Source of the DNA: Blattamonas nauphoetae | Lineage: Eukaryota > Preaxostyla > Oxymonadida | Length of the DNA stretch: 64,000 nucleotides | Direction: 5' to 3' | Assembly (NCBI GenBank): GCA_033064195.1 | Contig: JARBJD010000010.1 | Coordinates: forward strand, 62,001 to 126,000 | In this document: piece by piece, positions 11,588 to 63,224 of the stretch | How positions within the stretch are numbered: position 1 is the stretch's first letter | How the letters are laid out: every line of letters begins with the position of its first letter | Notes under the pieces: generated by a model | What the model was told of the DNA's origin: nothing | The model's database searches: none | Seen by the model: only the letters and a program-made list of their open reading frames with translations | Program-made: the position numbers and the translations under genes

Positions 11588-11954
11588 TATACTGGACTGA
11601 CCGAGGTGACCGGTCACTTTTTTCAAAAAAGTGCTGACGGTCAGTAACCGAGAGTTTTAAAAATATGGGTCAGATCATAAGCGGTTCATTCATCCTTTCC
11701 ATGCCAGTGATTCAAAATAATGTCTCTTTAACATTGTCCTGCTTCTTCCACATAAATCAAACAGGAAGAGGCGTGAAACTGTCATTTCTTCAACGGTTCA
11801 TGTGGCTGGATCAAACTGTTTTTTTCATTTGGGTTGATCACATCTGTTCGGAGACAATTTAGTGACAACTCACGTTCAAGTGCAACAGTGTTTAAACTCC
11901 TCATCGAAATGGTTGAGAGTCGTCTGATCGTCTTTTCTTTGTGACATTTCTCTT

Positions 11955-12552
11955 TTAACAGAAATTTGTGAACTTGTTGTTGTGTCAGGTGTTGTCACCA
12001 CTCTCATCGAGACATTCGCCAAAACTGTGAACGAATCACTCGATGAACGACTCACACAGGCAATCATTTGTGTCTTGGTCCTTGTGTCATGTATGTTCTT
12101 TCTCTTTTTTGGATTTTGATTTCAATTACAGTCTCTACTTGAAATCGAAGCAACTACACAGCTCACAGAAGGCACAGGCATCAGCCAGTAAATTTCGACT
12201 GTCATTCATACCATTTTCATAATATTTACCCAACTTGCCAGCCAAGGGCTTGATCTCCTCATCACCTCATTTCTCCAGGACCAGAAAACACTGTCGATCA
12301 ATTTCTCAGCCTTAACATTGTGCCTCATGTTGTAGCTGTCTTCCGGCTTCACTGTGTGAATAACCAGTCGATCGCTCGAATCGGGACAGACCTTCTTGCT
12401 CTCCTCGCCCAGAACGACACTCAGGACGAAGATATGAAGAAGATATGGTCGATAAGGCAGCAACTTAAGATAAAACGCGAACTATATCCTACTCTCACAT
12501 CGTCGACATTGTCTCACCAATCCGACACGCTGTACCGCGTTCTGAACAACTA
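11955..12552 (+). pseudogene. Armadillo-like gene fragment carried inside element A
   Basis: Plus-strand pieces inside element A read like alpha-helical repeat protein: SGVVTTLIETFAKTVNES near 11985-12040, then NIVPHVVAVFRLHCVNNQ and SIARIGTDLLALLAQND around 12312-12420. The second pair has the VVPxVVxxxRLHxxNxSIxRxGxxLLxxLA pattern of armadillo repeats (compare adjacent helices in ARMC-type proteins). The pieces are separated by frame changes and stops and have no start or end of their own. They look like host coding sequence captured and decaying inside the transposon. The armadillo call rests on pattern only. Confidence 0.4.
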
Positions 12553-13536
12553 AACAGTCGTACAGGATGCGGGATGAAATAATGTGACCCTTCTTCCCTC
12601 ATCACTCCCTCCGACAGGAATAAAAAGAAGAAGTCAAGGGGTGTCGGTCCGAATGAGCAGAAAGTGCATCTCTCAGTGTCAATGCTTGACATACGGAACG
12701 AGTGGAATGTGCTGAATATCTTCATTCAACTGGGTTCCGAGAGAGGCGACGCAACGTTCGTTGGATACGATCTGTCCATCTCAACATCGATGACCTCTCT
12801 CAGTCTGCTCCTCTCCCCTTTTCTTCTCTCCATCCTTTCTCTCTCTTCTTGTACTCTCTAAGAGTCACTGGCGAACAGCTACTGTCTCACAACCCTCGTC
12901 TCTTCGTTCAAAAGTGCATGTGCCCTCACCCACTTCTCCGCATCACCAGGAATCATCCTCGCGTTCATCTGTACACTACATTTCCCTTCTCTTCAAGCAG
13001 GCGTGTATTATCTCGTATATCCGAAAGGATTGATTTAAAGAGGAGGGCATGGATTTGTAAGAGCGGAAAGGGGACTGGTGAGCTTGTACGGGGCTGAGTC
13101 GGTTGGATCGGGGCAGGAGTCTTGGTTGGATGCGCAGATTCATTTATGAACAATTGTCAGTCGTTTTTATCCTCATTTCGACAGTTTTCTTCACGTTGGC
13201 CTCAACAACCAGAGTTTTCGAATCGTTTGACATTTCTTAGAATTCATGCAGTTATTCGTCTGTCTTCTCTCTTTTCTGGGTCCGTCATCACTAGACGACG
13301 ACAATGTTCATGATTCGTGCGAGAAGAGTCCACTTTTCCCATTGTCACGAACTGATCGATGGAGGAGGTGAATGTGATCTGCCCGGAGAAGAAGGATTCG
13401 TTGAACAAGCTGTTGTTTCAGAAAATCAACAATCTGTCAGAATATATAGTCAATTCTAACTTTCACCTTGATCAGACCCTTAGAGGAAACTCCGACTGAC
13501 ACTGACCGAGCCTCGAGGCTCGGTCAGTCCAGTATA

Positions 13537-56480: not shown

Positions 56481-59400
56481 ATGGCATTGTACTCGCGATA
56501 TATATCTAAGCACGGGTATATTTGTGTCTTCGTTAAGACTTTCTTTGATTGACTTAGTCCCCTTAGTCAAGTATGGATTGCAGCGAACAATGACCGAAAT
56601 CTGTCTAAAGGCAAGATTCTCCAAATCAACATTCCCGCAGCAGTGAAGATCATCAAAGAGGGTATTCCGATAGAAGAGAATGGGAAGAAAAAGATATCTC
56701 TTCCACTTCGGTATCAAGCGCATCTCCTGCTTGGACTGATTCGAATTTATACGCGGAAACTGAAATACATGGCCGATGATATCAATGAATTTCAGTCACG
56801 CCTCAATACTGTATGCTTTTTCCAAGACTATATTGCCGACAAAAATTTCTTGACTTGTTTATTGTGAGTTTCTTTTTCAACGCATTTTTGCTTTTTTTCT
56901 CTGTATGTAGAGTTTTCACACATCGAATATCGACCTTCCCCCTAATACTGGTCATGGATGTCGGTCACACATCACGATCCCAGAATCACCTCTGAATATG
57001 TCCACACCTCGCGATCCAACTCTGAACATATTTGGATCTCCATGTCCATCGCTGCTCATGCCGGACCCAACGCTGCAAAATATACTGGCCTGACCGGGGG
57101 TGACCGGTCACTTTTTCCCAAAAAGTACTGACGGTCAGTGACCGAGAGTTTTCGAAATATGGGTGACATTAGATCGAAGGATCCCGATGAAAACTGGATC
57201 AAATCTCCCTTTCTTTTCCATTTGATCCTCCTAGGACTCTGTTCTCTCTTTCTCAAACTTTTCATATTAAAATACTCCTGTTCTTCCGAATTCTTCAACA
57301 TCCATTTCAAAGGACATGTTCTCACGAGATCGGCCCAGAATCATGTGCTTTTTTCTCAAACAGTTCATTTGGGCATGATGTTGCTACAATGATGGACTCG
57401 ATACTTTCCTAATCGTCATTACGATACCTCACATTTCGTGGAAACTCGATTGGTGACAAGGATGTGTCTTAAATTGCTCGAGGCCGTTTTGAAGCACCAG
57501 AAGAGAGTGTTGATGGAATTGAGAAGAAGCAACAAGAGATAAAAGAGAAAAAGCGAAAGCAGATGGAGAAGAAGGGACTGTCGCTGGACAAAGACGTTGG
57601 CAATGCGAAACAGGAAGCAGATCCGTCCCCGACTGCTTCACCGATGATGGACGAGGAAGAAGAAGAAAAGAAGTCGAAATAAATCGAGGAAGAGCTGAAA
57701 GGGATGCTGAACATGGAGCTGGACTTAATTTACGAAGCACTTCATCCACCACTGATTATCCAACGACAAAAGAAGCCAAAACAAAAGGAGAGACTCTCTC
57801 TGTGCGGTGGAGTGAACGAAAGAACAGTTGCGGAGGTGATCGAAGAGGCTTTTGTGCCGATCGAAGAATACGACGAAGAAGTCACGGAAGACGAAGACAT
57901 TTCGGCGCTGAAACTGTCGTGCCTCTCGTACATCACTCTAGCCACATATATTATCACAGAGCGCGGAATGAAAGTGTTTGCAGTGGCGCTGATGAAAAAT
58001 AGGTTCTTGACGACAGTGGATCTGTCGAACAACAAAGCTGGGATGGGGAGGCCAAGCAAATAGCGGAAATGATCATAACGAACAAGACAATCACAACACT
58101 AACACTGAACAACTGCAAAATCGGGAACGTGGCGGGGAAGGATGTGTGCGAGGCGTTTGCGTGGAACACGACGATCGAACGATTTGATCTGTCACACAAC
58201 AACCTGTAGAACGAGGGAGCGGAAGGCCTTGCGAATGCGTTCCGGTCAAACAAGATCTGCCAGCTGACGCATCTAAACATTTCATCGAACAGGATGAAAG
58301 ACAAGGGAGGGATGGCACTGAGTGGAGAACTGGCCACGAACGAGAGACTGCGGCACATGAACGTGGCATCGAATGACTTGAACAACACTGTGAACTCGCT
58401 GATCTCGACACTGCGGACGAACACGTGTCTGCAGACGGTGGACTTCAGATTCAACGATTGCTCGCACATCCTGCTCGCTTATGCTTCTGTCTTCGCTGAA
58501 GGAGCTGCTGGACAAGAACAGGACACGGCAGAGGGATTGGTTAGAGGATGGTGTGAAGTCGAATTTGGTGTCGCTCCAACAGGATATGGATGAAATGGAT
58601 GAACTTCGGAGCCTGACAGCGAGCGAAGGAGCGACTCTGTCGGAGCGATGTCGATTTCTTGTCACGTAGCATCTGCTGCTGATCGAGACACAGCGAGAAT
58701 GCGAGCGGAAGGAACGGAAACTGCTGGAGCAGCTGGATGCGGGAGCGAAGCTGGTAATCACGCTGGGTGATGAAACGAAGGAGCTGACGAAGAGGAAGGA
58801 TGAGGACAGGAAGGACGGGGAGTTCCTAGCGCGAACGCAGACGACGGAAGCAAACCGACGAGTGCAGGAACGATCAGAAGCAGAGCGAAAGCGGAAGAAG
58901 ACGATTCGCCAGTTGGAAGACATGGAAGTGGGAGGGAGTGAGAAGATAGAGGAGATGGGGCTGGTGAGCTCGTATGGAGTCGAGGCTGTCGGATCGGTGG
59001 GATCGGGGCAGCGTGTTGCGAGCTCGCACCAGGAGCTGCGTACTGATGGATAGAGGGAGGGAGAAGAACTATTCAGTGAGGAACCGAAGCTGACCGTGAA
59101 GTTGGCTCGGTAGATGCGAGTGGAGATGGACGAGGTGGTTGTGATGTGACAGTGGAAAGTGGAGAAGATGAAGAACAAGCTGTGAAAAGTGGGAGAGCAC
59201 TTTCTATTGAGCTGATAATGGAAGAGAAGAAGGAAGAGGAGATTGGAAAGAAGGAAGAAGTGGAGGAGAGGGTGTGGAAGATGATTTGAACGCGAAGATC
59301 TCCATTTCAGTTTGTCAAGAACCAATCGACGTTGAAAGCAACTTTAATCTGGTGTGTGAGGGAATAATCGTAGGAGAAGCTGTTATATCACGACACATCA

Positions 59401-61152
59401 CAACAAATCAACAATTTGAGTCAATTCTCTCAGGTAGAGTGATCGGGCCCGTAGAAGAGAAGCGAGGTGACACTGACCGAGCCAAAAGGCTCGGTCAGGC
59501 CAGCATACTGCAAAATGAAGAATCGCCGCGTTCATCACTTTCACCGTTCACACTCCCCTCGAATCAGCTCAGAACACCGATGACGGACGGATACGATTTC
59601 AGAGAGTCTGACTACTTTGCGGGAGCAGCAGACAATCTGATGAGTGATATTCCTACGGTATGTCTCTTTTTTCATCTATAACTCTGCTGCTTCTTCTTGT
59701 TAGGTTTTCGTGACGCCAACAAATGATCCCGACGAGATTCGATGGCTGATCGAGTATGCTCACCAACAAGGAGGCTTCCAAGACTTCGATACATTCATGC
59801 AAACCACTGAGTTTTATAACCAACGTCCATCAGAATATAATCATCCCGATTCCTCGTCGCTCGCGTTTCACCCAACAACAATGCCCGAAATGGAAGACGG
59901 ATTCGAATATCCTGAACCCCAAGCACAAGAAAAGTCAAACAAGATCCTATTGTTCCTGGAAGACGATTTGGCGGCTCTCAAATCTTCTACGGGGAAGAAA
60001 AAGCGACAACAATCAGGTCCTCCGACCAAATCCGACTCAAGTCGAAACAAGGGTGTCAAAATAGATCAAGTCATTACATTGAGCGATCAGATAATGAGCG
60101 ATAACCAAGACGATACTCGAGATATTGTGAGGAGAATGGAGTTGAGCGAAATGATCATCTTCCCCTCACTGAACAACTGGTTGGATGATGAGCTCCTTGT
60201 CCCTCCGACAGATGAATTTATGGAGGAGTGGAAGAAACAGATTGACTTCGACCCTTCAGCATATCTGGAAAGGCTGAAAGCGATCAAGAGCAAAACATAC
60301 CTTGCCGCGCCTCCCGTTCAAATCGAGACACCTGACTCTCAAACTGTTCGCACTGGTATTGTTCTTTCTTCATGTTCCCATTCATTCTTCTCTCTTCTGC
60401 ATGTGCTGAAGACGCCCTCGCTAAAGTAGAGGGAAAGACGACAAACGAAAGCACTCCCTCGACAGACTCACTCGCCTCCCTCGAGGAAGCTGCTCGTCGA
60501 ACAACCACGAACAGCACGTCCACCACCCCACCGGGATTTGATGGAGTGTTTGAAGAACTCCGGTCACCCGGACCGTCTGATGAGCAAGGAGCCCTGGACG
60601 AATTCGCGACTCCACGGAGCATCACAGGCACGGAGGGGCAGCCGGAGGAAATGTTGATGGATGAGGAGATTCGCGACCTCCATTCGAGGATTCTCGCATC
60701 GAACTCGCCAGACGTCAACTCGAAGACGAACAGCCCTCACCGCACGATGGCCCCGTCACACGATCCTCACCAACAAAGCAAGCCTCCTCATGCTTTCTAT
60801 GACGACAAGACCCTTGACATGTTGGAAGTTGTCGCCTATCAATTCGACAAGGAGGAAGAAACAGAGCTTCCCTTCGAAAAAGCCTTCGACTACACTCCGC
60901 CCGGAAAAGACGCAACAGAACATCAGAAGAGGGAGGGGAGAAGGTACAAGGCACGCGCCTTCGCTGCCCTCCTCACTTTCGTGCAGGACAGGAATGTGAC
61001 GTCAAGACAGGATGCTCCGTACGCGCAGATCATGGTAGGGAGGACAGTTTGACATCTCTTTTTCGTTGATTTTTGATGAATTCTCGTTCTAGATTCAATT
61101 AGACAACTTCCTAAAGGAACTTTCGACCGAACAAAGGACCAGAAGTGACTAA
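56481..61152 (+). CDS. RAD21: Cohesin kleisin RAD21/SCC1, interrupted by transposon element B
   Basis: Exon 1 (56481-56520) MALYSRYISKHG joins PLSQVWIAANNDRNLSKGKI across a 42-base intron, then YQAHLLLGLIRIYTRKLKYM: the N-terminal SMC3-binding kleisin fold (animal SKRGPLAKIWLAAHWDKKL). The third exon reads SFHTSNIDLPPNTG to LLMPDPTLQ, where element B (57081-59507) is inserted. It resumes NEESPRSSLSPFTLPSNQ. The STAG-binding middle is KGVKIDQVITLSDQI to FPSLNNWLDDELLVPP. The C-terminal SMC1-binding winged helix is RRYKARAFAALLTFVQDRNV and QDAPYAQIMIQLDNFLKE, stop TAA at 61150-61152. Apart from the insert the gene looks intact, with about five short introns. With the insert present, the frame meets a TGA seven codons after PDPT, so this copy cannot make full-length protein unless the element is absent from another copy or removed. 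Confidence 0.9.
57073..57080. repeat. Target-site duplication of element B, left copy
   Basis: CTGCAAAA, identical to 59508-59515; reads Leu-Gln-Asn in the RAD21 frame. Confidence 0.9.
57480..59115 (+). pseudogene. Leucine-rich-repeat and coiled-coil gene carried inside element B
   Basis: Plus-strand pieces read as one degraded protein. A charged start (KKQQEIKEKKRKQMEKKG) is followed by EEELKGMLNMELDLIYEALH. Then come ribonuclease-inhibitor-type leucine-rich repeats: FLTTVDLSNNKAG, TITTLTLNNCKIGN, IERFDLSHNNL, QLTHLNISSNRMKDKGGMAL and RLRHMNVASNDLNN. A long coiled coil follows (ETQRECERKERKLLEQLDAG, NRRVQERSEAERKRKK). About five in-frame stops and at least two frame changes break it, for example within the AGMG/EAKQ repeat near 58050 and after HNNL at 58207. 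The design resembles flagellar or cytoskeletal LRR-coiled-coil proteins of protists. It is probably captured host sequence, and the intact parent gene is not in this window. Confidence 0.65.
59508..59515. repeat. Target-site duplication of element B, right copy
   Basis: CTGCAAAA, identical to 57073-57080. Confidence 0.9.
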
Positions 61153-63053: not shown

Positions 63054-63099
63054 TTGTTCGGCGATACAGCTCGACTAGTTCTGAATTGCATTGTAATTT

Positions 63100-63224
63100 T
63101 TCAGAAATATACTTTAATTATTCAGAAATGAACATAATTGTTCAGAAATGAACAGAGATTGTTCAGAAATGAACAATGATTCTTCACAAATGAACAGTGA
63201 TTTTTCTGAAATGAACACTAATTG
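63100..63224. repeat. Tandem array of a 21-base unit, six copies
   Basis: Units of 20 or 21 bases begin TTCAGAAATGAACA at 63100, 63121, 63141, 63162, 63183 and 63204, with changes mostly in the last seven bases and in the outer copies. The core TTCAGAAATGAA is nearly palindromic. Read on the plus strand the array gives a seven-residue repeat (SEMNNDS-like), on the minus strand SLFISEQ. Neither is linked to a recognisable protein. Confidence 0.8.

What the first reader, a model, noticed from the sequence alone, without database searches (positions are those of the whole stretch)
56481..61152. An essential cohesin gene (RAD21) is split by a TIR transposon, with the frame intact across the empty site
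Seen in sequence: element B lies between PDPTLQ and NEESPR of RAD21, with perfect CTGCAAAA copies on both sides. Reading from the left flank through one CTGCAAAA into the right flank continues the same frame with no other damage. With the element present the frame meets TGA seven codons later, and no donor lies before it, so ordinary splicing cannot bypass it. Cohesin kleisins are normally essential (established). The element must therefore be very recent, confined to one allele or one of several nuclei or gene copies, or removed from DNA in a programmed way. Precise removal leaving one duplication copy would be unusual and worth testing.
Basis: partly seen in the sequence, partly recalled or inferred. 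Interest (0 to 1): 0.88.

Follow-up and report, generated by a model that had tools for sequence, protein, structure and literature searches.

The report
hAT transposon splits spare RAD21 copy
A very recently inserted hAT-type transposon has broken one copy of a multi-copy cohesin gene in a gut protist, while open copies elsewhere in the genome, one of them still showing the unoccupied site, make the break ordinary and not a sign of programmed DNA removal.

Summary
A 2427-bp element (57081-59507) with near-perfect terminal inverted repeats interrupts a RAD21/SCC1-like gene, flanked by the 8-bp duplication CTGCAAAA. Across one duplication copy the frame continues; with the element present it meets TGA at 57091.

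The premise that this is the one essential cohesin gene fails. The genome (Blattamonas nauphoetae, by matching deposited proteins and contig lengths) holds at least 11 other loci of this family. In 10 of 10 fetched the element is absent from the site. One, 42 kb away on the same contig, has the exact unoccupied target and an open frame, and is deposited as a putative SCC1. Two divergent kleisins lie elsewhere.

The element is a non-autonomous hAT-type transposon: at least 11 full-length copies (97-100% identical), 8-bp duplications, decayed LRR-gene cargo, and a probable autonomous partner (8972 bp, 885-codon frame with a hAT dimerisation domain). Another RAD21 copy is broken by an unrelated TA-flanked insert.

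So: a recent, ordinary insertion into a redundant copy. Programmed or precise removal has no support, but no reads were available to exclude it.

The parts
56481..56515 (+). RAD21-like gene, exon 1 (ATG at 56481)
   Evidence: Spliced model; agrees with deposited paralogue P0001
56558..56810 (+). RAD21-like gene, exon 2 with most of the Rad21_Rec8_N domain; acceptor at 56556-56557 gives KHGPLSQVWIAA
   Evidence: PF04825 E 1.1e-19 on the frame 56553-56867; P0001 has the same residues at this splice; model
56911..57080 (+). RAD21-like gene, exon 3, part left of the insert, including the first target copy
57073..57080 (+). Target-site duplication, left copy CTGCAAAA
   Evidence: single copy in paralogue L009
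57081..59507 (+). Element B: non-autonomous hAT-type transposon, 2427 bp, with decayed LRR-gene cargo
57081..57096 (+). Left terminal inverted repeat TATACTGGCCTGACCG
59492..59507 (-). Right terminal inverted repeat
57091..57093 (+). First in-frame stop (TGA) met by RAD21 inside the element
59508..59515 (+). Target-site duplication, right copy CTGCAAAA
59508..59657 (+). RAD21-like gene, exon 3, part right of the insert (new gene sequence from 59516)
59704..60355 (+). RAD21-like gene, exon 4
60412..61052 (+). RAD21-like gene, exon 5 as mapped from the deposited protein (acceptor GAAG 60408-60411); the acceptor position of most paralogues reads GCAT here, 60399-60402
59218..61049 (+). Deposited chimeric protein BLNAU_2360 (P0005, 534 aa) as mapped here: begins inside the element, two gaps there that must be predicted introns, reads through the right repeat into RAD21
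   Evidence: the deposited coordinates themselves were not seen

Best explanation
A non-autonomous hAT-type DNA transposon, probably mobilised by the transposase of a larger element with the same ends, inserted very recently into exon 3 of one member of a multi-copy RAD21/SCC1-like gene family in Blattamonas nauphoetae and duplicated 8 bp of target. The insertion truncates this copy after 156 residues. The cell tolerates it because other copies, and two divergent kleisins, remain. The frame-intact 'empty site' is simply the state before insertion, still visible in the sister copy 42 kb away. Shown: insertion anatomy, duplication, paralogues with open frames, unoccupied sister site, other element copies, a transposase-bearing element with the same ends. 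Inferred: that this transposase moves element B, that the split copy is non-functional, and which copies supply cohesin.
For: 8-bp duplications at 21 of 22 element sites. At least eleven full-length copies including this one, 97-100% identical; two of the others are 99.96% identical over 2428 aligned columns. RAD21 paralogues: 12 loci of this family by PF04825 counting the window's own, two of them hit in two pieces. The element is absent from the site in 8 of 8 paralogues fetched and in 2 of 2 fetched. L009 carries the exact unoccupied target, an open frame, and is deposited as 'putative cohesin complex subunit SCC1'. Synonymous divergence between the window copy and L009 is 0.112, so the duplication is far older than the insertion. 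Two other kleisins carry both PF04825 and PF04824 above the cut-offs, with stop-free domain-bearing frames of 228/502 and 195/555 codons (full gene models not made). C446 element: 8972 bp, duplication CAAAGTTC, 885-codon frame with Dimer_Tnp_hAT. L016, another RAD21 copy, is broken by a TA-flanked 2.2-kb insert, with a 99.9%-identical uninterrupted twin, L015, so extra copies do take hits.
Against: dN/dS between the window copy and L009 is 0.47, so the copy was under some constraint before the insertion; on its own branch I count 17 synonymous and 27 nonsynonymous changes against 19 and 20 for L009, at most a slight relaxation. Identity between the two copies varies from 0.77 to 0.99 along the gene, so gene conversion may blur the age comparison. 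No DNA or RNA reads were available, so somatic or allelic absence of the element was not tested. Which kleisin copy is expressed or essential is unknown; the window family has a clearly RAD21-like N-terminus (human RAD21, E 8.3e-16), so it may be the main SCC1, though in several copies. Pfam finds the hAT domain of the partner only just above its cut-off (23.5 against 21.4 bits), and by position only 2 of the 61 elements paired (C412, C446) contain a match to that transposase; these long elements could themselves be composites.
Confidence: 0.93

Rival explanations
1. Programmed or precise DNA removal: the element is cut out of the expressed genome and leaves one CTGCAAAA, so the gene works.
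For: The frame is intact across one duplication copy. This is equally true of any recent insertion into coding sequence.
Against: The unoccupied sequence exists as a separate older paralogue (dS 0.112). The element behaves as an ordinary repeat, with at least 11 full-length copies and 8-bp duplications that mostly differ from site to site. It carries decayed cargo. hAT excision usually leaves a footprint (recalled). Open RAD21 copies remove the need for rescue.
Confidence: 0.03
2. Heterozygous insertion: the other allele of this locus lacks the element and was collapsed out of the assembly. This is a variant of the best explanation, not an alternative to it.
For: The insertion is very recent (99.96% identity to sister elements). 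The assembly's handling of alleles is unknown to me.
Against: No near-identical second copy of the flanks in the assembly: best non-self 96% left, 93% right.
Confidence: 0.25
3. Domestication: the element now supplies a promoter and start for a 5'-truncated RAD21 C-terminal protein, as the deposited protein BLNAU_2360 implies.
For: The deposited 534-aa protein maps from 59218 inside the element through the right repeat in the RAD21 frame; the stop-free stretch 59211-59681 spans the junction.
Against: The mapped model needs two introns within about 220 bp of element, has no Pfam match at E 0.1, and may be an automatic prediction; whether transcripts support it was not visible.
Confidence: 0.07
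4. Assembly artefact: a chimera between a RAD21 copy and an element copy.
For: The element is multicopy, and the B. nauphoetae genome bins were polished with Nanopore and Illumina reads (passage of PMC10703272), so long-read misassembly is conceivable.
Against: A clean target duplication with both true element ends is what transposition makes and a chimera would not (inference).
Confidence: 0.02

Closest known systems
hAT superfamily DNA transposons, non-autonomous members
   Same: 8-bp target duplications, short terminal inverted repeats, ends shared with an element whose 885-codon frame has Dimer_Tnp_hAT
   Different: Termini begin TATAC, which departs at position 5 from the hAT end consensus as I recall it; in the partner Pfam gave no BED zinc finger or DUF659 match at E 0.1
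Pack-TYPE transposons (plants; PMC8903248, search listing and start of abstract seen)
   Same: Non-autonomous TIR element carrying sequence related to a host coding gene: 86% identity over element 274-2203 to a locus with an 844-codon open LRR frame (LRR_6, 114.1 bits) and none of the element's ends
   Different: Found in a metamonad, not a plant; the cargo is decayed here; direction of capture is inferred
RAD21/SCC1 kleisin with multiple paralogues, e.g. Fusarium oxysporum rad21 paralogues (PMC6591460, search listing and start of abstract seen)
   Same: Several RAD21 genes in one genome
   Different: About a dozen loci here, at least two of them split by transposons; functions untested

Membership tests
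hAT superfamily (element B) | 8-bp target-site duplication | tested here: met
   CTGCAAAA here; 21 of 22 sites; the exception is the 8961-bp C412 element
hAT superfamily (element B) | Short terminal inverted repeats shared with an autonomous element | tested here: met
   First and last 40 bp of element B each differ by one base from the C446 element; that C446 is autonomous is inferred
hAT superfamily (element B) | hAT transposase in the partner | tested here: met
   885-codon stop-to-stop frame, PF05699 23.5 bits against cut-off 21.4; 26.6 bits for the C412 piece
hAT superfamily (element B) | Terminal consensus of the hAT type (recalled: second base A, fifth base G) | tested here: inconclusive
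   TATAC: second base A met, fifth base is C
hAT superfamily (element B) | Catalytic residues of the transposase | not tested
   No alignment to known hAT transposases was made
Pack-TYPE element | Carries host gene sequence between transposon ends without a transposase | tested here: met
   LRR_6 28.8 bits in a sister copy; C32 844-codon LRR frame matches element 274-2203 and not the ends
RAD21/SCC1 kleisin | N-terminal Rad21_Rec8 domain | tested here: met
   PF04825 71 bits in the window piece, 81.1 bits in P0001; human RAD21 E 8.3e-16
RAD21/SCC1 kleisin | C-terminal winged-helix Rad21_Rec8 domain | tested here: inconclusive
   P0001 matches PF04824 at 13.2 bits, below the 22.7 cut-off; the genome scan for PF04824 gave 3 hits, none in the window's family
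Programmed DNA elimination (IES-like) | Element absent from the somatic or expressed genome with precise junctions | not testable with these tools
   No reads available; the assembly retains at least 11 full-length copies

The most novel reading that the evidence does not exclude
The element is removed precisely from DNA or RNA of this locus in part of the cell's life, or the two halves are made separately (the C-terminal half from a start inside the element), so that this kleisin works as a removable-insert or split protein.
Probability: 0.04. Interest if true: 0.8.

Novelty: new member of a known kind. Interest (0 to 1): 0.2.

Why it matters
It points to recently active, gene-carrying hAT-type elements in an oxymonad, and to a strongly duplicated RAD21-like family of which at least two copies have been broken by transposons. 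It also shows that 'essential gene split, frame intact' means little until copy number is checked. The expanded kleisin family is arguably the more interesting biology.

Tried and rejected
Programmed removal: considered, no support. An intron-like reading of the element: rejected, since no GT lies between the insertion point and the first stop. The GCAT acceptor as proof of earlier pseudogenisation: rejected, since paralogue L015 also lacks AG there (CCGG) and an in-frame AG lies 9 nt on. The 8961-bp C412 element as autonomous partner: not preferred, because it has no target duplication and its transposase frame is in pieces; the C446 element has a duplication and one open frame. My first splice model misplaced two acceptors; one was corrected and both. 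PDB searches with the large exons of the two divergent kleisins gave nothing that classifies them: best E 0.12 for C801; for C1, 0.0056 to an uncharacterized protein (5x4h) and 0.33 to a '64-kDa C-terminal product' (8p0a). The PF04824 scan's control rang in 3 of 14 genomes, all below the cut-off; the PF04825 control rang in 0 of 14. In one search, 61 of 87 left ends paired with an exact right end; some unpaired ones (among them the window's own, C49, C70, C224, C623:289877, C689, C804) are full-length copies that miss the exact right-end pattern, and the tool did not list all of the 102 right-end matches, so 61 is a lower bound. Papers: searches (2 of 2 listed; 3 of 4; 10 of 14; 10 of 46) showed no title on this element or on a RAD21 expansion in oxymonads; only titles and abstract starts were seen. 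In PMC10703272 the words cohesin, RAD21 and transposable occur 0 times in the main text. Nothing else in print was searched.
Full report
What is there. Window 56481-61052 holds a RAD21/SCC1-like gene in five modelled exons, split in exon 3 by a 2427-bp element (57081-59507) with 16-nt terminal inverted repeats and the 8-bp duplication CTGCAAAA on each side. The left piece has the Rad21_Rec8_N domain (E 1.1e-19). Read across one duplication copy, the frame is open through the modelled exons; read into the element it stops at TGA 57091, and there is no GT in the element before that stop.

Which genome. The assembly has 88,311,006 bases in 837 contigs. PMC10703272 (passages seen) gives 88,537,989 bp in 879 contigs for Blattamonas nauphoetae. 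All nine deposited proteins found are named as B. nauphoetae, and their contig lengths (666738, 77696, 852974, 235715, 28631, 63848, 258993, 93507) equal those of G000 contigs C2, C261, C1, C833, C578, C324, C801 and C211.

The gene is not single-copy. PF04825 gives 16 rows above its cut-off in this genome (control 0 of 14 genomes). Two of these rows are more divergent kleisins (C801:90718 and C1:194655), with a C-terminal PF04824 hit above its cut-off about 2 kb downstream of each (control 3 of 14 genomes, all below the cut-off). Their domain-bearing frames are free of stops; I made no full gene models of them. The other 14 rows make 12 loci of the window's own family, the window included, with two loci hit in two pieces. 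I fetched eight of the other eleven (L009-L016) and two more (L060, L061); the C801:38225 copy was not fetched. In 8 of 8 and 2 of 2 the element is absent from the site. One, L009, about 42 kb away on the same contig, reads CCCAACGCTGCAAAATGAAGAATC: the target exactly as it would have been before the insertion. The seven others shown have diverged there (for example CTAACCGATCCAGAATC).

Are the other copies usable? Of the seven paralogues aligned, five are open through the modelled exons (L009, L012, L014, L015, and the shorter, diverged L011), while L010 and L013 have frame-shifting indels. Such indels can be assembly errors. L013 and L014 lie on the same contig, and the deposited P0002 maps over its length to L014; P0004 is deposited from L010's contig, but its sequence was not read. 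L016 was left out of that alignment because it is itself interrupted: a 2.2-kb insert with ends CAGCTCGACTAGTTCTGAA flanked by TA, at a site that reads CCAAATAATG in L015. Outside the insert L015 and L016 are 99.94-99.96% identical, so that insertion is recent too. L009 is deposited as 'putative cohesin complex subunit SCC1' (P0001); the deposited protein lacks a 14-residue stretch next to the target that my model keeps. Pairwise dN/dS among five copies (10 pairs) is 0.39 to 0.68: constraint, but not strong. Function is inferred throughout; no expression data were available.

Age. The window copy and L009 differ at synonymous sites by 0.112, while element B is 99.96% identical over 2428 aligned columns to the C224 and C49 copies. 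The insertion is far younger than the gene duplication, with the caution that identity between the two gene copies varies from 0.77 to 0.99 along the gene, which may reflect gene conversion. A young insertion fits a frame otherwise almost undamaged. The one possible extra lesion is the intron-4 acceptor (GCAT), which is ambiguous because L015 also lacks AG there and an in-frame AG lies 9 nt downstream. On the window copy's branch I count 17 synonymous and 27 nonsynonymous changes, on L009's 19 and 20.

What the element is. At least eleven full-length copies including this one match end to end at 97-100%. In one search, 21 of 22 element sites, several of them shorter relatives with partly or wholly other interiors, show perfect 8-bp duplications; the exception is the 8961-bp C412 element. 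The sites are not all unrelated: L020, L035 and L037 (and perhaps L018, which has the same duplication as L035) lie within a few bases of each other in what looks like one repeated host sequence. A pattern for the left end has 87 matches in the genome against 0 for the reversed control. Element B's interior is decayed sequence from a leucine-rich-repeat gene. A sister copy's frame matches LRR_6 (28.8 bits), and an 844-codon uninterrupted frame on C32, with LRR_6 at 114.1 bits, matches element positions 274-2203 at 86% with none of the element's ends found there, so the cargo was probably captured from such a gene. The likely mobiliser is an 8972-bp element on C446 with duplication CAAAGTTC and ends that differ from element B's by one base in each 40. 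It has an 885-codon open frame with Dimer_Tnp_hAT at 23.5 bits, above the 21.4 cut-off. By position, only the C412 and C446 elements among the 61 paired contain a match to this transposase. I conclude: a non-autonomous hAT-type, Pack-TYPE-like element. That this transposase moves element B is inferred from the shared ends.

Why not programmed removal. The argument for it was that cohesin is essential, so the split copy must be rescued. With several open copies and two further kleisins that argument falls. The clean site is accounted for by a paralogue that shows no sign of ever having been hit. The element sits at many places like any transposon. What is left is the possibility that some DNA or RNA molecules of this locus lack the insert, which only reads can test.

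A curiosity worth checking. The deposited protein for this locus, 'hypothetical protein BLNAU_2360' (P0005, 534 aa), maps from a start inside the element at 59218, over two gaps that must be predicted introns, through the right inverted repeat in frame and on as RAD21. Whether transcripts support this is not visible here; it may be a gene-prediction product.

Changes made on checking. The best non-self left-flank identity was mended from 95% to 96%, the PDB result for the C1 kleisin was corrected, and the branch counts, controls and clustered insertion sites were added.

Noticed in passing
window 11588-13536: A relative of element B (1949 bp, ends TATACTGGACTGACCG, perfect duplication GGGCCGGG) with a different, decayed interior.
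   Followed up: partly
window 63067-63223: Exact copy of CAGCTCGACTAGTTCTGAA, the end of the TA-flanked insert that breaks RAD21 copy L016, followed by TTCAGAAATGAACA-type tandem repeats: possibly the same family, Tc1/mariner-like by its TA duplication.
   Followed up: no
L016 (C211:38487-46487): A second RAD21 copy is interrupted by an unrelated 2.2-kb TA-flanked inverted-repeat element in exon 4; its 99.9%-identical twin L015 shows the unoccupied site.
   Followed up: partly
L013/L014 (C261) and L015/L016 (C211): RAD21 copies come in pairs on one contig with shared upstream DNA, and L009, L010, L012 share one left border of similarity at window 56143: repeated segmental duplication.
   Followed up: no
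L020, L035, L037: Three element copies sit within a few bases of each other in a repeated host sequence (TTGGATTCATTTAATA), beside a frame beginning MNPT.MYKERRR in L035 and L037.
   Followed up: no
L059 (C1:194300-200900): A divergent kleisin has an inverted partial copy of its C-terminal exon about 3.3 kb away.
   Followed up: no
window 59218-59660: Deposited protein BLNAU_2360 begins inside the transposon and fuses its right end to RAD21 in frame.
   Followed up: partly
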